Part shown: positions 7,083-18,940 of the stretch, in pieces
Numbering within the stretch: the first letter of the stretch is position 1
Layout of the letters: each line of letters opens with the position of its first letter
Source: Spirosoma sordidisoli
GTDB taxonomy: Bacteria > Bacteroidota > Bacteroidia > Cytophagales > Spirosomataceae
Direction: 5' to 3'
NCBI RefSeq assembly: GCF_004138325.1
Contig: NZ_SBLB01000008.1
Coordinates: forward strand, 1 to 64,000
Length of the DNA stretch: 64,000 bases
Translations under genes and position numbers: made by a program
The notes under the pieces: generated by a model
Told to the model about the DNA's origin: nothing
What the model saw: only the letters and a program-made list of their open reading frames with translations
The model's database searches: none

Positions 7083-8294
7083 TCAGGCGGGCTGCAGCTG
7101 TCTGATAACGGCTTCAAATTCTTCGGAGCGGTGTGACCAGGAATTGGCCCTGGCCAGCGCGATTCGCTGATCGAGCCGCTGCCGACTGGTATCGGCCAGC
7201 GCCCGCCGAAGGGCCGCCACAAAGGCGTCGGGCGTGTCGGCCAGCTCGACGATACCGGCAAAATCGTCCAGCAGGGAGAACGGGGTTGACACCACCGGTA
7301 ACCCGGCCGCCAGGTATTCGTTGATCTTCAGCGGGTAGATGGTATAGGTGTGCTCGTTACAGACAAACGGAATCATGGCTGCGCTCATCCGGGCCAGGAG
7401 TGGAGGTAACTCGGCTGGCTGGTGGGGCGGAACAAATTTTACGTTGGGATACGGAGCCAGCTGAACCCGGATCGTGGGTTCGTTTACTTCGCCCACAAAC
7501 ATAAAATCAAGGTCGGGCATTGTCCGAACGCAGTGCTCTACCAGCGGCAGATTGATCCGATCATCAGCGGTACCGAGGTAACCGACAACCGGTCGGTCCG
7601 GCACGGTCTGGTCGGTAAACGAGCGGGCTTTGTTAAACAGCTCAAAGTTGACCCCATTCTTGACGCAGAAGGTGCGGGGCTGCAGCAGCGACTTCGACTG
7701 CCGGAGCGTTTCGGAGGTTGTCACGACGGCATCGACGCCCTGCAGGTACAACGGTTCATAGCGCCCCCCGTGGCGGCTCATCCAGCGCGACATGGTAATC
7801 TCGTCGAAGCAGTAGTAGATAGTGGCCCATTCGTTCAGCTGCCTCAGCATGGGCAGACCAAACACCGGATTGAAGGCGTTGATGACCAGCGGACGGCTGA
7901 TACCCAGCTGTTTCATCACAGTCCGGAGTCCGGCCGTCAGGCGGTTCACATTCCAGCGCACCACCCGATCATGCGACCGCGCCGACAGCCAGTTGATGGG
8001 CAACATAACGGGCGGATGCCAGATATACGCTTCGGTGCCGTTGTCGAACAGTTTGCGGTTGAGCGAGGGGGCCAGCCCCAGCATAGGCCGTACGGGTATG
8101 TCGGTACGGCCGGTCAGCCCTTTGGCCAGGTCTTTAAGTGTGTACTGATAATCGACAAACACCACCCGGTGCCGGGCCGAGAGTTCGGTCATCAGCTGCA
8201 CGACTGCCTTCTGAAAATTGCCCTCCCACGACGTCTGGCCTATGCAGACAATACCGTCAAAAGGAGTGTTGTCTGTGAAGAGGTTGGGGTTCAT
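7083..8294 (-). CDS. Glycosyltransferase, GT-B fold (group 1-like)
   Basis: A protein of about 403 residues. The ATG at 8294 (MNPNLFTDNTPFDGIVCIGQ) is preferred because the 20 residues encoded upstream, up to 8354, lie deeper inside the preceding gene and look unconserved. Recognisable are VVTTSETLRQSK, then VGYLGTADDRINLPLVEHCV at the start of the second Rossmann domain, and PLKINEYLAAGLPVVSTPF, the donor-sugar loop with the conserved Glu. It overlaps the O-antigen ligase gene by 38 bases on the same strand, which suggests translational coupling. It is probably one of the sugar-adding enzymes of this locus; donor and acceptor are unknown. Confidence 0.85.
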   Translation of the reverse strand: MNPNLFTDNTPFDGIVCIGQTSWEGNFQKAVVQLMTELSARHRVVFVDYQYTLKDLAKGLTGRTDIPVRPMLGLAPSLNRKLFDNGTEAYIWHPPVMLPINWLSARSHDRVVRWNVNRLTAGLRTVMKQLGISRPLVINAFNPVFGLPMLRQLNEWATIYYCFDEITMSRWMSRHGGRYEPLYLQGVDAVVTTSETLRQSKSLLQPRTFCVKNGVNFELFNKARSFTDQTVPDRPVVGYLGTADDRINLPLVEHCVRTMPDLDFMFVGEVNEPTIRVQLAPYPNVKFVPPHQPAELPPLLARMSAAMIPFVCNEHTYTIYPLKINEYLAAGLPVVSTPFSLLDDFAGIVELADTPDAFVAALRRALADTSRQRLDQRIALARANSWSHRSEEFEAVIRQLQPA

Positions 8295-9753
8295 AGCGGT
8301 GAAGAGGAGGTTTCTTGGGGAGGGTGGGAATGTCCCAGCGTTCGCCGGTGGCAAACAGGACAGAATTGATGAATAGCATGGTACTGGTAGGAAACTGACC
8401 CAGAATCGGGTTCGAGTAACTCACTAAGGCAATCCCGATGAACTCGGCCAGCAGCGCAATCATGATAATCCGTAATCGATCGTCCCGAATCTGCCAGACC
8501 TTGTATACGCCCGTCAGGATAATGCCGGCCAGTACGAACAGATACAGCGACAGCCCAACCCGGCCCGTCTCGATCCAGATCTGAACATACCAGCTATCGG
8601 TCGGAATCTGCGACGCAAAATGGTTCGGAGAGAAGCGCTGCCCGGCCCCCGACGACGACCCGATACCGGCTCCGAACGGCAGGTCTTTCAGGTAGGCCCG
8701 CAGTTTAGCCTGGTTCTCGAGCCGCACGATGAACGACGCATCCTTGGTAGGACGCAGGGCCGTGCGTATGCGGTAGATCTGGTAAATAGAATCACCGAAG
8801 TTTGTAAACACCAGCACCAGCAGCACCGGCGTTGCCACCGCAATACCGCGCAGAATTGGCTTCAGCTGCCGCATCAGAAACAGGTAGGCCGGGTAACCAG
8901 CCAGCAGCCCAAACAAGGCGCTGCGGGTACCCGACACCGCAAACCCCCAGAACATAATCAGCGCCAGAATCAGGTAGCCAATTTTGTTGAGCCAGCGTTT
9001 ACTCTCGAAAAAGAAGATCAGACAGATCAGCGTAACGCCGGCCATCTCGGACCCGAACTGCCCGGCATCCGAATAAAAGGAGAAGCTTCGTAGCTGCCCC
9101 CAGAGAATGTGGGTGCGCTCGGCTCCCTCGGCCAGCCACCGCTGTTCAGCAGCCGCCAGCCCGATGTATTGCTGTTTGAACGCCCAGAAAGCCGCCAGCA
9201 CCGACCAGCCTACCCATACTCTGATCAGCGTATGAATGTCGCTGCGGGTAATGGGAGCCACGAAGACGATAATGGCCAGAAAGAACCAGTTGATCGAAAA
9301 CGACCGGATGTGGTAGAACCAGGCCTGCCGGGCGGGCGCATCGGGGTTATAATACTCCAGCAGCGTATACGTGAGCCAGAGAATGAGCAGGTAAAAAACC
9401 GGATTTTTGAGCCGCGACCAGGCCATACGTTTCCCGTTCAGAAACACACTGACCAGGGTCAGCGACAGAATAGCATCCAGCGACATACCCAGCGGGGCTT
9501 CGGTTTGCAGAAAGCGGGTGAAGCCCAGGATGAAGCTCAGGTTGATGTAAATCAGCAGGCCCAGGCGGGGTTCGAGCAGTATGCCCACCAGCGTCAGCAG
9601 CCCTACCGGTACTCCAACGGCCATCAGCGCCCCCATTATCCCGTAAGCGCCCAGGAGCGAGCCGGCTATCAGCGCACAGACAACCCCGATCAGGCCATAC
9701 ACCCAGCGGCTGTCGCGGAACAGGTTTTCCAGAGAAAGCGATTGATCGAACAT
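8257..9753 (-). CDS. O-antigen ligase/Wzy-type polysaccharide polymerase
   Basis: A 498-residue inner-membrane protein with about 11-13 hydrophobic helices. The family signature region is the long periplasmic loop with GAGIGSSSGAGQRFSPNHFA, followed by TDSWYVQIWIETGRVGLSLY, as in Wzy_C/WaaL proteins. These enzymes either polymerise repeat units or ligate glycan to its acceptor on the periplasmic face. The neighbours, glycosyltransferases on both sides and a flippase at the far end, suit a Wzx/Wzy pathway. Which of the two reactions it catalyses cannot be told from sequence. Confidence 0.85.
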   Translation of the reverse strand: MFDQSLSLENLFRDSRWVYGLIGVVCALIAGSLLGAYGIMGALMAVGVPVGLLTLVGILLEPRLGLLIYINLSFILGFTRFLQTEAPLGMSLDAILSLTLVSVFLNGKRMAWSRLKNPVFYLLILWLTYTLLEYYNPDAPARQAWFYHIRSFSINWFFLAIIVFVAPITRSDIHTLIRVWVGWSVLAAFWAFKQQYIGLAAAEQRWLAEGAERTHILWGQLRSFSFYSDAGQFGSEMAGVTLICLIFFFESKRWLNKIGYLILALIMFWGFAVSGTRSALFGLLAGYPAYLFLMRQLKPILRGIAVATPVLLVLVFTNFGDSIYQIYRIRTALRPTKDASFIVRLENQAKLRAYLKDLPFGAGIGSSSGAGQRFSPNHFASQIPTDSWYVQIWIETGRVGLSLYLFVLAGIILTGVYKVWQIRDDRLRIIMIALLAEFIGIALVSYSNPILGQFPTSTMLFINSVLFATGERWDIPTLPKKPPLHRYEPQPLHRQHSF

Positions 9754-9767
9754 ACAAAGTCAAAAAA

Positions 9768-10985
9768 TTAGGCGGCCCGACGTGCTTTTTCCCAAACACC
9801 CGAAATCGAGCCGTTGCCATAACGCCAGAAACCGAGCAGTACGCACCAGTTCATAAACACGAAGTAAAACGGTACAAACGTGAGTTTCCAGCGCGTTTGC
9901 CGATTCTCCAGCACGTAGCCAAGCATGGCTGCTGCGTAGAAAACAAGCTGTATCCCAAACAGTAACCACCAGAACCGGGTCGAAGCCGGGTCGGGCCGGG
10001 TCAGCATGATGACGTTGAGCAGCAGCAGCAATGGCAGACAAAACGGTGTAACGGCCCAGCGCAGCACCCGGTGCGATACGTACTGAAAGCTGAGCCAGCC
10101 GTACCGAAACACGTTCAGCAGATAAGCCAGTCGTTTCATGGCCTGGAAGCCCCCCGTAGCAATGCGAACCTTGCGTTTCATCTCCTCGCCAACCGAAAAT
10201 GAAGGCGACTCCAGCGCGTAGGCATCCGGCGCGTAGGCCACCCGATAGCCCCGGCCCGCAATGCGCAGGGAAATCATAAAATCGTCGAGCAGCGTATCCG
10301 TCTCAACGGGTTCGTACAGTTCCGTTCGGATGGCAAACAGCTCTCCCGCAGCCCCAACAATGGTATACAGTTCGGCGTCGAGCTTTTTGAGGAACGACTC
10401 ATACCGCCAGTAAAGCCCCTCTCCACTGCCCGCTGCCGCTTCGAAGCCCGCCTGCCGGATCCGTTTTTCACCCGTTACGGCCCCTACCGTTGGCGCGTTG
10501 AACCGACGTACCAGCCGACTAATCGCTTCCAGGTTGAGATGTGTATTGGCATCGGTGAAAATGGTGATCGGCGTCGTGATCTGCTGCATAGCCCGGTTCA
10601 TGGCCGCTACCTTCCCCAACCGTTCGGATCCCGACAGTATGGTCAGATTCGGCAGATCGGCCCGGCGCTGCTCCAGGTACTCCGCCGACCCATCGGTTGA
10701 TCCTTCTACCACGAAAAGCAGGTTAAGCTGGCTGGAAGGATAATCCTGGGCCAGGCAGTTCTGGAGCTTTTCGGGCAGGTAAGCCCGTTCGTTATAGGCA
10801 GGTACCACCAGCGTCACCAGCGGCAGCGACCCGGCCGGACCGGGCAAATCGGCCGACTTGCCCAGCCGCGCCTTCAGGCTCACCAGTATCCACGCCAGTA
10901 CTCCATAGCCCATGTATGTATATAGAACCACAAAAACCAGTAGAAAAAAGGCGTAGGCCGTCAGGTCGTAGAGGGTACTGATCAT
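9768..10985 (-). CDS. Membrane glycosyltransferase family 2 (synthase-like)
   Basis: A protein of about 405 residues. The ATG at 10985 (MISTLYDLTAYAFFLLVFVV) opens directly with a membrane helix, so the 18 codons upstream are left out. The GT2 core shows VTLVVPAYNERAYLPEKLQN, then FVVEGSTDGSAEYL, IFTDANTHLN (D-x-N/D) and ETDTLLDDFMISLRIAGRGY with the catalytic DD. Two to four C-terminal membrane segments follow, the layout of processive or membrane-tethered GT2 synthases. It starts 17 bases after the stop of the next GT2 gene, so the two are in one operon. Confidence 0.87.
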   Translation of the reverse strand: MISTLYDLTAYAFFLLVFVVLYTYMGYGVLAWILVSLKARLGKSADLPGPAGSLPLVTLVVPAYNERAYLPEKLQNCLAQDYPSSQLNLLFVVEGSTDGSAEYLEQRRADLPNLTILSGSERLGKVAAMNRAMQQITTPITIFTDANTHLNLEAISRLVRRFNAPTVGAVTGEKRIRQAGFEAAAGSGEGLYWRYESFLKKLDAELYTIVGAAGELFAIRTELYEPVETDTLLDDFMISLRIAGRGYRVAYAPDAYALESPSFSVGEEMKRKVRIATGGFQAMKRLAYLLNVFRYGWLSFQYVSHRVLRWAVTPFCLPLLLLLNVIMLTRPDPASTRFWWLLFGIQLVFYAAAMLGYVLENRQTRWKLTFVPFYFVFMNWCVLLGFWRYGNGSISGVWEKARRAA

Positions 10986-11002
10986 GGGGGGAGATGAAGG
11001 GG

Positions 11003-11947
11003 CTAAACCGGGGAGACACTGGCCGATCGGACGTTCCACAGCACGCCGTTCAGGAAGGCACGGGCATGGGTAAACTGCCCCCTTGCAAGATACGAAATCA
11101 CGTGCTTCGGTAACACTAATGCCGCAAAGAAGCTATAAAAAACCAAACGTTGAAACAACGAACAGTGACGGCGCATATACAGAATCCGGTTGCGCGTCAG
11201 GTAATAGGTGCGCAGCGGACTTTCCCGACCAACCGAGACCGACTCTTTGTGCAGAATCGTAACCTCCGGCTGGTAATAAATCAGAAAACCGGCATTGCGT
11301 ATGCGCTGCGACCAGTCCAGTTCTTCGTAATACAGAAAGAACCGATCGGCAAACCGGCCTACCCGCTCAACTACTTTCCGGCTCACGAGCATGGCACAGC
11401 CGTGGGCAAAGTTGGTCGGGCCGGGCCGATCGTAGCGTCCGTCGTCGGTTTGATTGTAACCAATTATAGTCGCCGTGCCCGTATACATATTCATCGGATT
11501 GTAGCCGGCATACTGCACCAGCCGGGGCGAATCGTAGAAGCGGATTTTTGGGCAGGTAACACCAACCTGACTATTCAGGTCGAAAGGTGCCAGCAAGGCT
11601 TCCAGGACAGACGGATCCAGCTCGGTATCGTTATTGACGATAAAGAAATAGTCGCCCCGCGCGTGGTCCATGCCCAGGTTGTTGCCCCCCGTAAAGCCCA
11701 GGTTCGTATCGCTCCGCACGACCTTCAGATTCGGGTACCGGGCAGGGTCGATCTGGGTAAGTAAAGCGGGTTCAGATGCGTTGTCTACCACCACGATTTC
11801 AACATTCGGGTAGGTTAGCATACGGGCTGACTCCAGAAACTCGCGGGTCGTTTCGGCCTGGTTATAATTGATGGTGACAATAGAAACGCAGGCAGACGCG
11901 GGGGTTAGACGTTCTCCTTCTGCCATAAGCTGAAAAAGGTTCGCCAT
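11003..11947 (-). CDS. Glycosyltransferase family 2 (rhamnosyltransferase-like)
   Basis: A 314-residue GT2 enzyme. Motifs are VSIVTINYNQAETTREFLES, VEIVVVDNAS, LGFTGGNNLGMDHA and YFFIVNNDTELDP (D-x-D equivalent NND-x-E), followed by a downstream FFLYYEELDWSQRIRNAGF. This set is typical of the rhamnosyltransferase-like branch. The frame overlaps the sugar transferase gene by 43 bases; an ATG seven codons in, at 11926, would shorten the overlap to 22 bases. It is part of the same minus-strand operon as the neighbouring GT2 and the initiating transferase. Confidence 0.88.
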   Translation of the reverse strand: MANLFQLMAEGERLTPASACVSIVTINYNQAETTREFLESARMLTYPNVEIVVVDNASEPALLTQIDPARYPNLKVVRSDTNLGFTGGNNLGMDHARGDYFFIVNNDTELDPSVLEALLAPFDLNSQVGVTCPKIRFYDSPRLVQYAGYNPMNMYTGTATIIGYNQTDDGRYDRPGPTNFAHGCAMLVSRKVVERVGRFADRFFLYYEELDWSQRIRNAGFLIYYQPEVTILHKESVSVGRESPLRTYYLTRNRILYMRRHCSLFQRLVFYSFFAALVLPKHVISYLARGQFTHARAFLNGVLWNVRSASVSPV

Positions 11948-13155
11948 ATAATATACGCGTCCGTTCGGAACGAGAAACTGCTGGCATAATCAATATCGAG
12001 CAGGGTTCGCTCCCGATCCGACATGGGCCCCTGCCCCTTGGCCCGTTTTTTTATCTGCCATAAACCCGTCAGGCCCGCCGGTCCGGCAAACCGTTGTGCA
12101 AACTCGTCGGAGGTTAGCTTTTCGGCTTCGTACAGCGGCAGCGGCCTGTTCCCCACCAGCGACATGTCGCCCAGCAGCACATTTACCAACTGCGGCAGCT
12201 CATCAATACTACTGTTCCGCAGAAACGTGCCCAGCCGGGTAATGCGTGGGTCGTTGCGGAACTTCATGAACTTAGCCGATTCATTACTTTGCCGCAGGTA
12301 CTGCTTCTCGCAGATGGTCTGGTTGTGATCGATCAGCAGTCGCTGGCAACTGGTTCCTTGCTGCTGGCAATCGGTGCACAGCCGTTCTCCGCCCGCCGAC
12401 AAATCTCTTAGCGCTGGCGATTCCTCCGAAATACTGGCATAAATATTGCTAGCGGCCATGCTGTTCAATTGTTGGTCGGCCTGCACCTTCATCGTCCTGA
12501 ATTTATACATATTGAACACCCGGAAATTTGTTCCCGCGCGTTTTGACATATAAAAAGCGGGGCCTTTACTGTCGATAACAATAGCGATCGCTACCAGCAG
12601 CAGCAAAGGCGATAGAATCAGTAAGGCAATTGACGAAACGGCAATATCAATCAGGCGTTTCCACCAGGGTAACCGAAAATGCTGAAACGGTGCTGTGCGT
12701 TCAACGTGCTGATTCGTCTGAATCCGTTTTTTCAGATCGATGTAATATTGAACTTTAGTGATGAGCCGGCCATCTCCTTCACTAAGTAACAGAATATCAG
12801 TTACTCCGCTCGAAAAAAGGGCTGACGATAGCCGGGGTTCGGCTGAGTACGACATCACCAGAACCGGCACCAGTCGATGTCGGGCGTGGGTACGGATCAG
12901 GTTGGCTACGTCTTTTTCGTAGCTTATATCCACGATGATAAGGCTAAGGGCTACCGCTTCCGATAGCCCTTTTTCGAACTCACCTATGCTCTCACAACGC
13001 TCAACCGGACCGTACTTTCCGACGATTGAGGTTATCCTATGCGTTGCAGCGGTGCCATTTTCCGATAGTATCAGACACAAATCGGACGATTTACTCACGG
13101 AATTGACCTGAGTCACTACATTTTTCAATTCCGAGTTCAACACTTTGGCACACAT
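11905..13155 (-). CDS. Polyprenyl-phosphate sugar-1-phosphate transferase with N-terminal receiver-like domain
   Basis: A 416-residue protein that probably starts repeat-unit synthesis by moving a sugar-1-phosphate to undecaprenyl phosphate. The bacterial sugar transferase domain begins near residue 165 (WWKRLIDIAVSSIALLILSP, a membrane hairpin). It contains NMYKFRTMK, SSIDELPQLVNVLLGDMSLV and GLTGLWQ. Two features are unusual. Residues 25-140 resemble a response-regulator receiver: SLIIVDISYE keeps the acceptor Asp near 76, but the acidic pair and the conserved Lys are lost. Between KFRTM and the DELPQ motif there is a roughly 60-residue insert with cysteines at about 260, 263, 270 and 282, which could bind a metal. 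The gene lies 95 bases downstream of a separate receiver gene. Confidence 0.88.
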   Translation of the reverse strand: MCAKVLNSELKNVVTQVNSVSKSSDLCLILSENGTAATHRITSIVGKYGPVERCESIGEFEKGLSEAVALSLIIVDISYEKDVANLIRTHARHRLVPVLVMSYSAEPRLSSALFSSGVTDILLLSEGDGRLITKVQYYIDLKKRIQTNQHVERTAPFQHFRLPWWKRLIDIAVSSIALLILSPLLLLVAIAIVIDSKGPAFYMSKRAGTNFRVFNMYKFRTMKVQADQQLNSMAASNIYASISEESPALRDLSAGGERLCTDCQQQGTSCQRLLIDHNQTICEKQYLRQSNESAKFMKFRNDPRITRLGTFLRNSSIDELPQLVNVLLGDMSLVGNRPLPLYEAEKLTSDEFAQRFAGPAGLTGLWQIKKRAKGQGPMSDRERTLLDIDYASSFSFRTDAYIIWRTFFSLWQKENV

Positions 13156-14100: not shown

Positions 14101-16335
14101 CTACACCGACTCCGTTTGTTGCTGCCAGAACTGCGAATACGCCTTTCCATTGCGCAATAATTCTGTGTGTTTCCCTTCCTCGATAACCCGCCCCTGCTCC
14201 AGTACGATAATCTTATCAGCCTTACGAACGGTGCTCAGTCGGTGAGCGATAATGATAATGGTCTTTCCTGCTTTCCGGAGCAGCTGCACCGTCTGCTGAA
14301 CGTAGTTTTCAGAGGCTGAATCAAGAGCCGAAGTAGCTTCGTCCAGAATAAGAATCTGCGGGTCGCGATAGAGTGCACGGGCAATGGCCATACGTTGCTT
14401 CTGCCCGCCCGACAGGGTAGCTCCGTTCTCTCCCAGATAAGTTGTAAACCCATTCGGCATTCGCTCAATAAAGTTGGTAATGCCGAGCTGGCCACATATG
14501 GTCAGGATCCGCTGCATGTCCGGGTCTTCTTCGCCGACGGCTATGTTCTCTATTACGTTGCCAGCAAACAGATCGATCTTTTGCGGCACTACGCTCACCA
14601 CCCGGCGGAGGCTATCGGCGTGCAGGTGCCGGATGTCGTACTCCCCTATGAAAATGTTGCCACTCTGCAGCGGGTACAGCCCCTGTACCAGCGACAGCAG
14701 GGTCGACTTACCCGAGCCACTCTCGCCCACTACGGCCGTAATTTTTCCTTTTGGCATAACCAGACTCAGGTCGTCGAAAACGGGCGCCCGGGTGCCGTAC
14801 CGAAAGGTGACATTCTTGAAGCGGATATCCCCCACCATGTCGGGCTTGAGCTGCACTTTGTTCTCGTTCGACTCCCGATCGAGGTCCATAATTTCGAATA
14901 GCCGGTCGGCCGCGATAAGCGCTTCCTGAATGCTGCGGTTAGCGCCAATCAGACTGGCGGCTGGCCCGGTGAAATAACCTATCAGCGCGTAAAAAGACAG
15001 CAACTCGCCCGGAGTCAGGTCGTTGCTGAGTACGTACCCCGCCCCAACCCAGAGGAGCACGATCGTGAACAGACGGGTAATGAACTCCGATGCATTACCG
15101 GCGTAGATCCCCATGCTGCCGGTCTGGAAAATCGTTTGCAACAACCTGACGAACCGATCTTCGGTTTTCTGGCTGGCAAACTGTTCGAGCCCGAATCGTT
15201 TGATGGTTGGCATAGCGTTCAGCGATTCGACCAGCTGCGCTTCGAGGTCGGCCGCGTTTTCCATCTGCTGCCGCTGGTTACGCTGGTTGAACCGGTTCAC
15301 CACCCAGTAGATGCCCGCGTAGAACGGAACGATGAGTACCAGAATCAGCGCCAGCTTCCAGTAGTACGTGAACATGAGTCCGAACGAGAACAGTACGATC
15401 AGCACGTTCACGATCAGCCCAAGCGCTACGTCGTTGATAAACGTTCGGATTTTGACCGCGTCGTTGATTCGCGAGATGACCTCCCCTACCCGCATGGTGT
15501 CGAAGAACGACTGCGGCAGGGTCATCAGGTGTTTATAATACCCCAGAATCAGCGCGGCATCCATCCGCTGGCCGGTTTTTAAGTTGAAAAAACTCTTGGT
15601 TGCGTTGATGAACACCTGAAGAACCAGCAACCCGATCATCACCACACTCAGCAGGTTCAGCAGGTTGCGGTTTCCGTTGACGAGCACGTTATCAACGATC
15701 TTCTGAATGTAAATAGCCGACGACAATCCCAGGATGGTGTATACCAGCGCGCCGAACAGGGCCTGGAGCATAACCGACCGATGCGGCTGCAGCAGTTGCC
15801 AGAACCGTTGCAGAACCGGCACCTGCTCGTTACCTACCCGAAACGTCTCATCCGGAATAAGCAACACCAGCAACCCGGTCCAGACCTGCGCAAACGCCTG
15901 GGGCGATAGCTGGTGCAGCAGCCCATCGGCCGGGTCCATGACGGTAATCTGTTCGGCGGTAATCCGGTAAATGACCACGTAATGGTGCAGTGCGCCGTCG
16001 CGGATGGCTACGTGGGCGATGGCAGGCAGTGGAATTTTGGACAGGCTTTCTACCGTAGCTTTAACCCCCTTGGCCTGAAAACCCATCTTCTGGGCAGCCT
16101 CCACCATACCCAGCACGTTGGTACCTTTCTGGTCGGTAGCGGCCATCTGCCGAATGCGGGCAACGGGCAGCAACAGCCGGTAATGGGCCGCTACAGAAGC
16201 CAGACAGGCCGCCCCGCAGTCGGTTACGTCGCGTTGTTTGACCTTTACGCGGGCGCTGATCGTGTCAGTTGTCAGCCCTTTGAGCCGCGCCAGCCAGGCC
16301 GACGCGCGGGTTTTGAGTGGGGTGAGTTGGCTCAT
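14101..16335 (-). CDS. C39-peptidase-containing ABC peptide exporter (PCAT)
   Basis: A 744-residue bifunctional transporter that removes a double-glycine leader and exports the cargo peptide. The N-terminal C39 peptidase has Cys40 in RDVTDCGAACLAS, His118 in ALHHYVVIY and Asp134 in VMDPADG, so the catalytic triad is complete. Six transmembrane helices follow at about residues 185-460. The ATPase domain has Walker A GESGSGKST near 536, the signature LSGGQKQRMAIARAL near 641, Walker B ILILDEATSALD near 664 and an H-loop AHRLSTV. It overlaps the adaptor gene by four bases (ATGA). The two leader peptides encoded just upstream are the obvious substrates. Confidence 0.95.
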   Translation of the reverse strand: MSQLTPLKTRASAWLARLKGLTTDTISARVKVKQRDVTDCGAACLASVAAHYRLLLPVARIRQMAATDQKGTNVLGMVEAAQKMGFQAKGVKATVESLSKIPLPAIAHVAIRDGALHHYVVIYRITAEQITVMDPADGLLHQLSPQAFAQVWTGLLVLLIPDETFRVGNEQVPVLQRFWQLLQPHRSVMLQALFGALVYTILGLSSAIYIQKIVDNVLVNGNRNLLNLLSVVMIGLLVLQVFINATKSFFNLKTGQRMDAALILGYYKHLMTLPQSFFDTMRVGEVISRINDAVKIRTFINDVALGLIVNVLIVLFSFGLMFTYYWKLALILVLIVPFYAGIYWVVNRFNQRNQRQQMENAADLEAQLVESLNAMPTIKRFGLEQFASQKTEDRFVRLLQTIFQTGSMGIYAGNASEFITRLFTIVLLWVGAGYVLSNDLTPGELLSFYALIGYFTGPAASLIGANRSIQEALIAADRLFEIMDLDRESNENKVQLKPDMVGDIRFKNVTFRYGTRAPVFDDLSLVMPKGKITAVVGESGSGKSTLLSLVQGLYPLQSGNIFIGEYDIRHLHADSLRRVVSVVPQKIDLFAGNVIENIAVGEEDPDMQRILTICGQLGITNFIERMPNGFTTYLGENGATLSGGQKQRMAIARALYRDPQILILDEATSALDSASENYVQQTVQLLRKAGKTIIIIAHRLSTVRKADKIIVLEQGRVIEEGKHTELLRNGKAYSQFWQQQTESV

Positions 16336-17522
16336 GCTGCTTTACCGCCCTCCTGCTGCGCCAGATCTTTCGTGGATGATGACTTCGGATTGACAGCCGG
16401 GTTCAGCCAGTCGTCGGCTTTGTCGTACAGGAGCTGAAACAGTGACCGGCGGGCTACCTGAAAACGGGTCTGTACCGTCATGCCTTTTTTGAGCTGGCCC
16501 CGGTACCCATTGGCAAGCGACAGATACGACCGGTCCAGCTGGCAGCGGACTTTAAAGACAGGCTCGCCATTGGTTACGGTAAAGTCGTTGGCTACGTCGA
16601 TCACACGGCCGGTGAGTAAGCCCCACTGGTTGTAGTTGAACGCATCGACCTGCAGGCGAACGGGCTGGCCGGGCTGGATCAGGCCAATATCCTTAGACGG
16701 CACGTACGTTTCGACGATGAGGGTAGAATCGGGCGAAATCACGGCCATCACGTCGCCGGGCTGTACGTAGCTGCCGGCATAACGCCCTCCCAGCTGGCTG
16801 GCAGTTCCGCCGACGGGGGCCTTCAGGATGTAAAGTTCTTCCTGCTCGGCCAGCTGCTTAGCCTCCGATTCGAGGTTGTTCAGATCGCGCCGTACCTGCG
16901 TCAGATCGGTTTGCCAGTCACTCCGTTGTTGCTCGACCAGCGTGTTGTAGCGGGCCAGAGCCGCTTTGTGCGCGTAGAGCGCGTCTTCGTATTCGAGCCG
17001 GGCAATGACTTTCTGGCCGTATAACTGGCGGGCCGTCTCGTACTCCCGACGGCGTTTCTCCTGCAGATTCCAGCTCTCTTCCACCACCGACCGAAACTGG
17101 TTGTACTGCTGCCGGTAAAGCGGAGCCGACAGGCCGGCAATCTGTTTCCAGGAGCGGGTGGTGAGCTGGCTGAGGTCGCGTACAAACGCCTGTTTCTCGG
17201 TTCGTTGCTGATCGAGCAACTGCTGGCGCGTCTGAAGCTGCTCGGACCGGAGCCGGAACAGGGGCTGGCCTTTTCGGACAGTCTGCCACTCCCGAACCAG
17301 CACCGCTTCGACAACCGCTCCGGCGGTAGCCTTCACGTCGCTGCGTTCGGAGACGGGCCGCACCAGTCCGTTTGCCTGTACCGTTACGTCGACATAGATA
17401 AACGGCAGGGCCAGTAAGGTGAGCACGATGGCGCCGAGTACCGTAGTATAGATTATCTGGCTGCGTACGCTGACCCGGGGCAGGTAGGTGACGAGGCCAT
17501 AGGAAAAATCGGTTTCGTTCAT
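16332..17522 (-). CDS. HlyD-family periplasmic adaptor of the peptide exporter
   Basis: A protein of about 396 residues starting MNETDFSYGLVTYLP; an ATG five codons upstream at 17537 is an alternative. One membrane helix lies near residues 25-50 (IIYTTVLGAIVLTLLALPFI). Then comes a lipoyl/biotinyl-like half motif, a long coiled-coil hairpin at about 90-235 (many Gln, Arg and Glu, with QQLLDQQRTEKQAFVRDLSQ), the second half motif and a beta-barrel domain (VETYVPSKDIGLIQPGQPVR). This is the membrane-fusion partner that links a C39 ABC exporter to an outer-membrane TolC. No TolC is encoded in the cassette; the nearest is at 32.6 kb. It is separated from the peptide genes by an intrinsic terminator. 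Confidence 0.92.
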   Translation of the reverse strand: MNETDFSYGLVTYLPRVSVRSQIIYTTVLGAIVLTLLALPFIYVDVTVQANGLVRPVSERSDVKATAGAVVEAVLVREWQTVRKGQPLFRLRSEQLQTRQQLLDQQRTEKQAFVRDLSQLTTRSWKQIAGLSAPLYRQQYNQFRSVVEESWNLQEKRRREYETARQLYGQKVIARLEYEDALYAHKAALARYNTLVEQQRSDWQTDLTQVRRDLNNLESEAKQLAEQEELYILKAPVGGTASQLGGRYAGSYVQPGDVMAVISPDSTLIVETYVPSKDIGLIQPGQPVRLQVDAFNYNQWGLLTGRVIDVANDFTVTNGEPVFKVRCQLDRSYLSLANGYRGQLKKGMTVQTRFQVARRSLFQLLYDKADDWLNPAVNPKSSSTKDLAQQEGGKAA

Positions 17523-17560
17523 GGTCGCGTTGAGCAAATTCCTGGTGTGTACCTACGGGA

Positions 17561-17636
17561 AAACAAAAAGCAGGGATTTTGCCCATGAGCGGAAACGAGG
17601 GAACGGGTTCCTGTATTTCCGGGCGAAATCCCTGCT
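17561..17636 (-). terminator. Intrinsic terminator between leader-peptide genes and exporter genes
   Basis: In the minus-strand transcript AGCAGGGATTTCGCCC (17636-17621) pairs with GGGCAAAATCCCTGCT (17584-17569), 15 of 16 matched. GGAAA/TTTCC and GGAAC/GTTCC pairs lie inside. A TTTTGTTTT run follows at once. This has the form of a Rho-independent terminator, and it sits between peptide A and the adaptor gene. It would let most transcripts stop after the peptide genes and a minority read into the transporter genes. Confidence 0.75.
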
Positions 17637-17680
17637 GAAACATTACTATGGCGGGCTTATACGGGGCCCGATCCGCTTAC

Positions 17681-17923
17681 CTACGACCGGCTGAACAGAA
17701 AGCCGAAGCTACTGCTCGTACTGGTGTCGGCGCTGGTACTGTTGCCGCTGAACAGGGCGTTGTCGCCACTCAGGAGGCTGTTACCACTTATATTGACCAG
17801 GTCAGCTACCAGCAGCGAGCCGATAGTACCGATGCTCGTGCTGTCGCCACCACCGTGGTTATTAATCATTTCGCTGTTGGTCAGTTCTTCGATACCAAAC
17901 TGGGTTGTTTCTAGCGTTTTCAT
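17681..17923 (-). CDS. Double-glycine leader peptide A (putative secreted peptide)
   Basis: An 80-residue peptide. The leader (MKTLETTQFGIEELTNSEMI, then NNHGGG) fits the bacteriocin-type double-glycine pattern. With cleavage after Gly25, Leu14 sits at -12, Glu18 at -8 and Met19 at -7. The predicted mature peptide has about 55 residues (GDSTSIGTIGSLLVADLVNI onward), is rich in Ser, Gly, Asn and Thr, has no cysteine and ends in RS. The segment LSGDNALFSGNSTS is identical in peptide B. No modifying enzyme is encoded nearby. It may be an unmodified bacteriocin, a signalling peptide or a self-assembling matrix peptide. Export by the adjacent C39 transporter is strongly supported; function is unknown. 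Confidence 0.85.
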   Translation of the reverse strand: MKTLETTQFGIEELTNSEMINNHGGGDSTSIGTIGSLLVADLVNISGNSLLSGDNALFSGNSTSADTSTSSSFGFLFSRS

Positions 17924-17989
17924 ACCGATACAGTTTATGGTGAAAAGAATGAATACCCCCGACCACCCGGCCAGGATACGCGCCGTCGC

Positions 17990-18232
17990 TTATGAGCGGC
18001 CCGACACAAAACTGAACAGGGTGTCGGTTACGGTGCTGAGGCTGGTGCTGTTGCCGCTAAACAGGGCGTTATCCCCACTCAGTACGTTGTTGCCACTTAC
18101 ATCTACCAAATCGCCGATGGCAATGGAGCCGATATTCAGCAGGCTGGTACTGTCGCCACCGCCGTGGTTGTTGATCATTTCTCCGTTGGTCAGTTCTTCG
18201 ATTCCGAATTGTGCTACTTCAAGCGTTTTCAT
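17990..18232 (-). CDS. Double-glycine leader peptide B (paralogue of peptide A)
   Basis: An 80-residue paralogue of peptide A, 56 of 80 residues identical by direct alignment. The leader differs at only three positions (MKTLEVAQFGIEELTNGEMI, then NNHGGG). After the cleavage site, DSTS, IGS, DLV, SGN and the whole block LSGDNALFSGNSTS are kept, while the remaining hydrophobic positions vary. It is the first gene of the predicted transcript and lies 66 bases upstream of peptide A. Equal length and a shared core suggest either a two-peptide bacteriocin or gene amplification of one secreted product. There is no immunity-like gene between or next to the two. Confidence 0.85.
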   Translation of the reverse strand: MKTLEVAQFGIEELTNGEMINNHGGGDSTSLLNIGSIAIGDLVDVSGNNVLSGDNALFSGNSTSLSTVTDTLFSFVSGRS

Positions 18233-18401
18233 AACGATATAGATTTACTGAGAAAAGTGCCTACTCTATCAGCTTTTCGGCTTCCGCTGGACTCCTGACG
18301 ACCCGACCCGGCTGACTGCGCGCATCGGACTGCCGTTTGCCTGTGACAAAGGTGGGGGATGAATGGACAGGCTCTGATAACGGTTTTTTATAGTTTCATA
18401 G

Positions 18402-18435
18402 CCATCGGTTATAATTTTATAACCCATCGGTATAA
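18402..18435. promoter_or_regulatory. Candidate operator: direct repeats plus palindrome
   Basis: CCATCGGTTATAA at 18402-18414 and CCATCGGTATAA at 18424-18435 are direct repeats 22 bases apart, about two helical turns. Between them the sequence GGTTATAA-TT-TTATAACC (18407-18424) is an inverted repeat. This is a natural binding site for a dimeric helix-turn-helix protein. It lies between the peptide genes and the divergent XRE regulator gene. Confidence 0.45.
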
Positions 18436-18459
18436 GCACCCTCTGGCTCAGAAAGTCAA
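18429..18459 (-). promoter_or_regulatory. Possible promoter of the peptide operon
   Basis: On the minus strand TTTGACT (-33/-35-like; TTGACT spans 18459-18454) is followed after 19 bases by TATACC (18434-18429), inside the right direct repeat. The second half lacks the TTTG of the Bacteroidota consensus, so the call is weak. If it is right, the repeat cluster would cover the promoter. Confidence 0.25.
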
Positions 18460-18670
18460 AAAAAATGATCGGCAACCCCGACCATCTAACCAACCCGTTT
18501 ACAAGCAGTTACTCCCACTCCAGCGCCGGGTATAGGCTGGACTGGTTTAGGCAGCCTATTATATAAGGAATCTGAACGCCCGTTTTCTGTCGTATAAATA
18601 GCCTACAAACATGATCTAGATTACATCATATGGACTGATCGGCTACGTTTCGTTATAAACCGCTTGTTTT

Positions 18671-18940
18671 ATGCACGTGCTATCGGAAAAGCTTCGTCGG
18701 CTGCGCCAGTTGTTTGGTTACTCGCAGGAATACGTGGCCTTCACTATCGGTATGACCCAGCCCGCCTACTGCAAATGGGAAAGTGGCCAGACCCAGCCGT
18801 CTATTGCTAAACTGCAGGACCTGGCCACTCTGTATCAACTGACCATTGGCGATCTGCTGAACGACGATGACGTCGACATTATCAGGAAGCTGCTGGCCGA
18901 CGAGCACTTTGCCGAGAAGCTCCTGGGCCGACCCAACTGA
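18671..18940 (+). CDS. XRE-family helix-turn-helix regulator
   Basis: An 89-residue DNA-binding protein. The Cro/CI-type HTH occupies residues 4-60 (LRRLRQLFGYSQEYVAFTIG, then MTQPAYCKWESGQTQPS) and is followed by LQDLATLYQLTIGDLL and a 25-residue acidic tail. There is no ligand-binding or peptidase domain. It is divergent from the leader-peptide operon and is the best candidate for its regulator and for binding the repeats at 18402-18435. It converges on the acetoacetyl-CoA synthetase gene with only four bases between stops. Confidence 0.88.
   Translation: MHVLSEKLRRLRQLFGYSQEYVAFTIGMTQPAYCKWESGQTQPSIAKLQDLATLYQLTIGDLLNDDDVDIIRKLLADEHFAEKLLGRPN

What the first reader, a model, noticed from the sequence alone, without database searches (positions are those of the whole stretch)
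14101..18940. Complete double-glycine peptide export cassette with two paralogous peptides and no known maturation or immunity gene
Two 80-residue peptides with matching leaders lie directly upstream of an HlyD adaptor and a C39-ABC exporter with an intact Cys-His-Asp triad, and a small XRE regulator is divergent. The mature parts contain no Cys and are rich in Ser, Gly, Asn and Thr, unlike typical disulfide-type class II bacteriocins. No lanthipeptide, radical-SAM or other modifying enzyme and no immunity protein is seen in the neighbourhood. It could be a two-peptide bacteriocin, an autoinducing peptide system or an exported matrix/amyloid-like peptide tied to the nearby exopolysaccharide locus.
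Basis: partly seen in the sequence, partly recalled or inferred. Interest (0 to 1): 0.85.

Follow-up and report, generated by a model that had tools for sequence, protein, structure and literature searches.

The report
RNA-led cassette exporting paralogous small peptides
A Spirosoma bacterium carries a compact, conserved gene set that makes two sister peptides, is built to trim them and ship them out of the cell, and has its own regulator and a structured RNA of unknown function in front of the peptide genes; the peptides more likely build or coat something outside the cell than act as a classical antibiotic, but this is unproven.

Summary
Window 14101-18940 encodes two 80-aa double-glycine (GG) peptides (70% identical), an HlyD adaptor, a C39-ABC exporter with Cys40/His118/Asp134, and a divergent XRE regulator. 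The same layout, with 1-4 peptides, was found in 10 of 222 genomes of the family, in four genera. No further gene recurred in all ten loci, so no immunity or modification gene was seen to travel with it. The exopolysaccharide locus is not a conserved neighbour.

DUF805b is more than the printed 4-bp stem: a loop/downstream pairing covaries in two sets (50 and 40 sequences), making it a pseudoknot. In this family it also precedes other GG peptides near other C39 exporters.

Best explanation: XRE- and RNA-controlled export of acidic Ser/Gly/Asn-rich peptides that act outside the cell, most likely as self-assembling surface or matrix material (works like cyanobacterial EbfG/PteB). A Cdz-like contact toxin is the main rival. 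The export anatomy is well supported; the function is inferred.

The parts
17990..18232 (-). pepA, 80-aa double-glycine precursor; predicted cut after Gly25 gives a 55-aa mature peptide
17681..17923 (-). pepB, 80-aa paralogue of pepA (70% identical); its core is closest to the last peptide of other loci
16332..17519 (-). HlyD-type membrane fusion protein (395 aa from ATG; a TTG start lies at 17537)
14101..16335 (-). C39 peptidase-containing ABC exporter, Cys40/His118/Asp134
18671..18940 (+). divergent 89-aa XRE regulator; orthologues (E<=1e-18) in 10 of 222 family genomes, each of which has the cassette
18370..18424 (-). operator-like array: palindrome GGTTATAAAATTATAACC (18407-18424), a degenerate copy (18386-18403) and a half-site (18370-18383), 21-22 bp apart; first site and half-site found in 10 of 10 loci
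18331..18355 (-). conserved CCACCTTTGTCACAGGCAAACGGCA block; promoter-like (inference)
18258..18290 (-). DUF805b RNA (RF02914, 44.8 bits, gathering score 35.6) in the presumed 5' UTR of pepA, 25 nt before its ATG; stem plus proposed pseudoknot
17562..17635 (-). terminator-like hairpin (17570-17635, -31.2 kcal/mol) and T-run between pepB and HlyD; similar in 9 of 10 loci

Best explanation
This is a self-contained type I secretion cassette. XRE binds the tandem sites in front of the peptide genes and controls their transcription. The DUF805b pseudoknot in the leader RNA tunes expression in response to an unknown cue. A leaky terminator after the peptides keeps peptide output well above exporter output. 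The C39 domain cuts both precursors after Gly-Gly, and the ABC/HlyD pair plus an unlinked TolC-type channel exports them. Outside, the acidic Ser/Gly/Asn-rich peptides, built of Gly-Asn/Asp steps between short hydrophobic stretches, act as self-assembling surface or matrix material. Shown by sequence: the parts, their conservation, and the RNA structure by covariation. Inferred: binding by XRE, regulation, termination, cleavage, export and function.
For: Cassette found in 10 of 222 family genomes, four genera, with nothing else seen in all ten. Leader residues L14, G24, G25 invariant in 21 of 21 peptides; exporter triad present. Operators 10/10; DUF805b at 11 sites in 10 cassettes, 7 over the gathering score; hairpin 9/10. 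60 OEP (TolC-type) domain hits in the own genome. G[ND] steps enriched over shuffled cores in both window peptides (P=0.0009 and 0.006). At least one aggregation-prone stretch in each of 25 mature peptides by a recalled scale, with no control. Mature part under purifying selection. Precedent: EbfG1-4 of Synechococcus, GG proteins that need the C39 peptidase PteB for efficient secretion and biofilm, EbfG1-3 amyloid (PMC4997328 and PMC9981879, passages).
Against: No direct evidence of assembly; AlphaFold gave no confident fold (mean pLDDT 50.5). Of the three EbfG fragments quoted in PMC4997328 two are Tyr/Pro-rich, and none visibly resembles these peptides. Cargo differs strongly between genera (G083, G220), which would also suit a toxin. 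Patchy presence (7 of 36 genus genomes) suits an accessory weapon as well as a matrix. Mature dN/dS rests on 26 of 120 pairs. The hairpins were chosen as the best fold in each spacer.
Confidence: 0.45

Rival explanations
1. Contact-dependent or diffusible antibacterial system: two or more peptides act together on competitors, as Caulobacter CdzC/CdzD do, with immunity encoded elsewhere or intrinsic to the producer.
For: Two to four peptides at 8 of 10 loci; alpha-type and beta-type cores recur across species (modest support). Same kind of export route and similar size as CdzC/CdzD (86 and 84 aa), of which CdzC forms insoluble surface aggregates (PMC5380434; abstract, passages and section 13). 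Cargo exchanged between genera.
Against: No immunity candidate recurs, whereas cdzI could not be deleted alone in a producer. The glycine zipper GxxxGxxxG is absent from 17 of 21 peptides, both window copies included. Mature parts are acidic.
Confidence: 0.27
2. Peptide signalling: the exported peptides are sensed by the population, and XRE or a nearby LytTR/histidine kinase pair responds.
For: Dedicated XRE and operators; a LytTR regulator and histidine kinase lie next to the exporter in 5 of 10 loci (domains confirmed in one).
Against: Those 5 loci share one genomic context and the pair was not seen at the other five. XRE is 89 aa with an HTH and no peptide-binding domain found. Mature peptides of 55 aa in up to four versions are unusual for a pheromone (general knowledge).
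Confidence: 0.12
3. Precursors of modified peptides (RiPPs) whose modifying enzyme lies elsewhere in the genome.
For: 7 of 21 members hit Pfam Mersacidin weakly (best E=1.7e-4). Spirosoma has GG-peptide loci with lantibiotic dehydratases.
Against: No enzyme recurs with the cassette. No Cys in 20 of 21 mature parts, so no lanthionine there. Where a dehydratase was confirmed (L079, L082) it sits beside other GG peptides.
Confidence: 0.08

Closest known systems
EbfG1-4 / PteB, Synechococcus elongatus (PMC4997328, PMC9981879; passages read)
   Same: Operon of several small GG proteins and a C39 transporter needed for their efficient secretion; biofilm role; EbfG1-3 form amyloid
   Different: Quoted fragments not similar; no XRE, operator array or DUF805b in the passages I saw; other phylum
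CdzABCDI, Caulobacter crescentus (PMC5380434; abstract, outline, passages, section 13)
   Same: Two 84-86 aa proteins with a secretion leader, type I exporter; CdzC forms insoluble surface aggregates
   Different: Has the CdzI immunity protein and glycine zippers; neither is a conserved feature here
Class II microcins (PMC9746304; passages)
   Same: GG leader, C39-ABC, membrane fusion protein, TolC-type channel
   Different: Described as having a cognate immunity protein; none recurs here. No search with the ten verified microcins themselves was run
rtg locus of pneumococcus (PMC7018657; passages)
   Same: Divergent regulator, several GG peptides, dedicated C39 exporter
   Different: Rgg regulator with its own pheromone; Gram-positive
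DUF805b RNA, RF02914
   Same: The window site and 6 more of 11 cassette sites pass the gathering score
   Different: The structure printed by cmscan shows only the stem; the pseudoknot and the link to GG-peptide/C39 loci are added here (the original description was not available to me)

Membership tests
C39 (GG-peptide) type I export cassette | C39-ABC with Cys/His/Asp triad and HlyD adaptor | tested here: met
C39 (GG-peptide) type I export cassette | small precursors with a conserved double-Gly leader | tested here: met
   G24 and G25 invariant in 21 of 21 rows
C39 (GG-peptide) type I export cassette | cleavage after Gly-Gly and export | not testable with these tools
   needs mass spectrometry
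Class II microcin / class II bacteriocin | cognate immunity gene near the peptide | tested here: not met
   no recurring candidate in 10 loci; a far or overlapping gene is not excluded
Class II microcin / class II bacteriocin | antibacterial activity | not testable with these tools
   assay needed
Cdz-like contact-dependent bacteriocin | glycine zipper GxxxGxxxG | tested here: not met
   0 in both window peptides; present in 4 of 21 A2 peptides, in one of the two G220 cassette peptides and in the G083 peptide
Cdz-like contact-dependent bacteriocin | immunity protein CdzI | tested here: inconclusive
   no recurring candidate, but no search with CdzI itself was run
EbfG-type biofilm matrix peptides | several small GG proteins with a C39 exporter | tested here: met
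EbfG-type biofilm matrix peptides | amyloid formation and biofilm requirement | not testable with these tools
   only composition and a recalled aggregation scale
DUF805b RNA (RF02914) | covariance-model score over the gathering score | tested here: met
   window 44.8 vs 35.6 bits; 7 of 11 sites in the ten cassettes over it
Lanthipeptide | Cys in the core and a Lan synthetase | tested here: not met
   no Cys in either window peptide; no enzyme recurring with the cassette

The most novel reading that the evidence does not exclude
DUF805b is a pseudoknotted sensor RNA that gates production of GG-leader peptides in Cytophagales, and this cassette is its most elaborate client: a peptide-fibre system of Bacteroidota in which one conserved chassis (XRE, operators, RNA, exporter) is loaded with genus-specific self-assembling Ser/Gly/Asn-rich peptides.
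Probability: 0.25. Interest if true: 0.78.

Novelty: new variant of a known kind. Interest (0 to 1): 0.6.

Why it matters
GG-peptide exporters are often filed as bacteriocin genes. Here a whole, repeatedly conserved cassette lacks a recognisable immunity or modification gene, so it is a clean test of non-antibiotic GG peptides in Bacteroidota. It also gives an orphan cis-regulatory RNA (DUF805b) a genetic context, peptide-export loci, and a better structure, so a search for its ligand or trigger can start from a defined reporter.

Tried and rejected
Rejected: link to exopolysaccharide (not seen in relatives); conserved immunity ORF, since the recurring small frames are readings of the leader/operator region, antisense to peptides, or parts of one shared flank; glycine zipper; wide XRE regulon, since in the own genome the 17-base operator pattern occurs without mismatch only as this palindrome (read on both strands) and at one other place, with no GG peptide in the 3 kb around it.

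A crude signal-peptide rule for DUF805b clients could not be told from background (21 of 40 outside the family and 18 of 39 non-cassette sites inside it, against 317 of 724 long ORFs), so I do not claim that DUF805b marks secreted proteins in general; my notebook entry said more than that and is withdrawn. Two other notebook slips: entry gives zipper-free peptides as 15 of 21 (it is 17), entry gives 7 of 10 over the gathering score (it is 7 of 11 sites).

Against my reading: the full-length tree pairs window A with window B weakly (81/75), while the core tree (39 columns, G003 dropped, bootstrap unsettled) puts window B with beta-type copies (82/87), so the two-subtype reading is tentative. 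The GG count for DUF805b clients depends on the rule: 16 of 39, 9 of 39 when a signal-like stretch takes precedence.
Full report
Observation. Both precursors are 80 aa, 70% identical. The leader reads L14-xxx-E18-xxxxx-G24-G25; L14, G24, G25, G26 and D27 are invariant in 21 of 21 family members, position 18 is Glu or Asp. The triad is Cys40, His118, Asp134. No Pfam or NCBIfam family describes the peptides; 7 of 21 members hit Mersacidin weakly, best E=1.7e-4, and 8 of 21 DIP2311-like_C, best E=0.012.

Distribution. The genome belongs to Spirosoma, judging from relatives named (S. terrae, S. panaciterrae, S. arboris, Spirosoma sp. 48-14) that equal the unnamed G033, G015, G003, G021 in contig length; NCBI lineage Bacteroidota, Cytophagales, Cytophagaceae (GTDB's family name Spirosomataceae is recalled). 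Peptide matches: 7 of 36 genus genomes and 9 of 222 family genomes. In an even sample of 390 genomes of the order 4 matched: the own genome over the full length and three others weakly, inside long frames. XRE orthologues at E<=1e-18 occur in 10 of 222 family genomes and each of the ten has the cassette; in the order sample 1 of 390, the own genome. Numbers of peptides: window 2, G008 3, G021 3, G022 2, G015 3, G033 3, G003 1, G145 4, G220 2, G083 1. G083 and G220 keep XRE, HlyD and C39 but carry mature parts that do not look like the Spirosoma core, mostly again rich in Ser, Gly, Asn and Thr (60%, 64%, but 39% in the second G220 peptide). So chassis and leader are conserved and the cargo is exchanged between genera.

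What travels together. Clustering ORFs of at least 100 aa within 5 kb of the ten cassettes, C39 and HlyD recur in 10 of 10; next come an S41 peptidase in 6 and flank genes, including a LytTR/histidine kinase pair, in 5 loci of one shared context. XRE and the peptides, being shorter, were followed. Among ORFs of 40-220 aa within 1.5 kb that do not overlap known genes by more than half, the recurring frames are readings of the leader/operator region, antisense to peptides, or that shared flank. Immunity or modification encoded far away, or inside another gene, is not excluded.

Paralogues. Within the window the leaders are 88% identical. The pepB core (residues 26-64) is closer to the last peptide of G033 and G022 (82%) than to pepA (72%). 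The core tree supports an alpha clade (88/98) and a beta clade that holds window B (82/87), on 39 columns with an unsettled bootstrap. The full-length tree pairs window A with window B at 81/75. I take this as a hint, not proof, of complementary partners.

Transcription control. Aligning the ten XRE-peptide intergenic regions shows GGTTATnAnnnTATAAC, a degenerate copy and a half-site GTTATC 21-22 bp apart, then a CTTTGT...CAAACGG block, then the leader element; the first site, half-site and CTTTGT are in 10 of 10. In the window the first site is a perfect 18-bp palindrome. With up to one mismatch the genome has 14 strand-hits against 5 for the reversed control pattern; the three without mismatch are this palindrome read on both strands and one other place, with no GG peptide in the 3 kb around it. 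A local, dedicated regulator is the simple reading.

Leader RNA. Window 18258-18290(-) matches RF02914 DUF805b at 44.8 bits, gathering score 35.6. The search covered 35 genomes: the ten with a cassette and 25 of the 29 other genus genomes. In the ten cassettes there are 11 sites at 33.5-44.8 bits, 7 over the gathering score; G220 has one before each peptide, and a further one (31.8 bits) before an orphan GG peptide elsewhere. The structure printed by cmscan has one 4-bp stem. From the sequences I proposed that loop bases GCC pair with GGC downstream. On 50 sites (all listed with E up to 1.2e-5, less one duplicate at the other end of the G008 contig; 24 genomes) the seven pairs form in 93.7% of cells, covariation score 0.505 against 0.183 in shuffles, 0 of 500 reaching it; sliding the partners by 1-3 columns leaves at most 0.110. 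On 40 further sites, the best listed site of each of the 40 top-ranked genomes outside the family, not used to propose it: 97.4%, 0.483 against 0.129, 0 of 500, slid at most 0.087; of the weaker measures, 6 and 8 of 500 shuffles reach the numbers of pairs and of types. The outer pseudoknot pair is GC 17, AU 8, UA 8, GU 5, unpaired 2. The shuffles do not correct for relatedness. The pseudoknot is well supported; whether its describers already drew it I could not check.

Link of DUF805b to peptide export. Of the 50 sites, 11 precede cassette peptides. Of the other 39, 16 have a first downstream ORF that fits a loose GG rule, 14 of these 16 with a C39 exporter in the fetched locus. The rule fits 868 of 7094 random-position ORFs and 14 of 548 starts of long ORFs. 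Counting loci instead of sites, 11 of 34 non-cassette loci hold a C39 gene (tallied by hand), against about 1.6% expected per 17 kb from the 7 C39 matches of the own genome. Outside the family the link is weaker: 9 of 40 by the rule (L217 and L221 look false on inspection) and 6 of 40 with C39, 11 of those 40 loci being under 15 kb because a contig ended. DUF805b itself occurs in 166 of 390 genomes of the order at E<=1e-7. In L222, from another family, two nearly identical 77-aa GG peptides, each with its own DUF805b, sit before HlyD (36% identical) and C39 (56%): a similar layout outside the family, without XRE beside it.

Attenuator. Between the last peptide and HlyD, 9 of 10 loci have a hairpin with a T-rich tail (-20.9 to -36.8 kcal/mol). 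Eight folded alone have z-scores -3.6 to -6.9 (stretches chosen as the best fold, so z is inflated; the ninth, G021, was not folded alone). The alignment of nine shows 20 pairs, 6 with changes on both sides, covariation term only -1.5. The simple terminator scan did not list this site; it allows loops of 3-8 and found 7 others against 4.4 expected. G083 gave none.

Function. Composition (49-59% Ser+Gly+Asn+Thr in 20 of 21 peptides, 40% in G003; net charge -2 to -4), G[ND] steps, tandem paralogues, high peptide-to-exporter output (inferred from the hairpin) and no immunity gene fit exported building material best. The precedents are EbfG/PteB, where GG proteins need a C39 peptidase for efficient secretion and three of them form amyloid, and, with toxicity and immunity, Cdz. 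Literature: among the titles and abstract starts listed by searches (29 and 62 list 15 of 320 and 12 of 362 papers) I saw no paper on this cassette; Spirosoma with double-glycine gave 0 papers; DUF805 gave 8 papers, none on the RNA by title or abstract start.

Noticed in passing
G000:C26 about 107-112.5 kb (L054:3186-8443): Second XRE - GG peptides - HlyD - C39 cassette on the same contig (C39 73% identical, HlyD 54%), with different GG peptides; no DUF805b match listed there.
   Followed up: partly
G000:C1:1615200-1615235 (L058:7201): DUF805b at 52.0 bits directly before a 73-aa GG peptide, 2.4 kb before another C39 exporter.
   Followed up: partly
L079 to L086: Spirosoma loci with up to seven short GG peptides, HlyD, C39 and a gene that looks like TolC (not tested); in L079 and L082 a lantibiotic dehydratase confirmed by Pfam, similar large frames in several others.
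   Followed up: partly
L222:7232-11787: Two 77-aa GG peptides, nearly identical, each behind its own DUF805b RNA, then HlyD and C39, in another family of the order.
   Followed up: partly
L061:10087-10338: Orphan GG peptide (83 aa, Cys-containing, alternating Leu/polar stretch) with DUF805b in front and no C39 found in the 20 kb fetched.
   Followed up: partly
L045:11273-13514: C39 gene of G008 is split into two overlapping frames; the locus appears twice, near both ends of the single contig, which looks like an unclosed assembly.
   Followed up: no
window 17724-18242 (+): Long open frame antisense to both peptide genes, probably a by-product of Ser-rich codons.
   Followed up: partly
window 7083-13155 (-): Polysaccharide genes (sugar transferase, two family 2 and one group 1 glycosyltransferases, Wzy_C ligase) downstream of the cassette, not seen beside it in relatives.
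   Followed up: partly
G000:C21 about 519.9 kb (L057:15894-16115): 73-aa Cys/Gly-rich GG peptide 3.7 kb from another C39 exporter.
   Followed up: no
window 18132-18146 (-), pepA residues 30-34 or so: The LLNIG stretch of pepA resembles the amyloid hot spot LAFNIG quoted for EbfG2 (PMC9981879); five letters, possibly chance, and absent from pepB.
   Followed up: no
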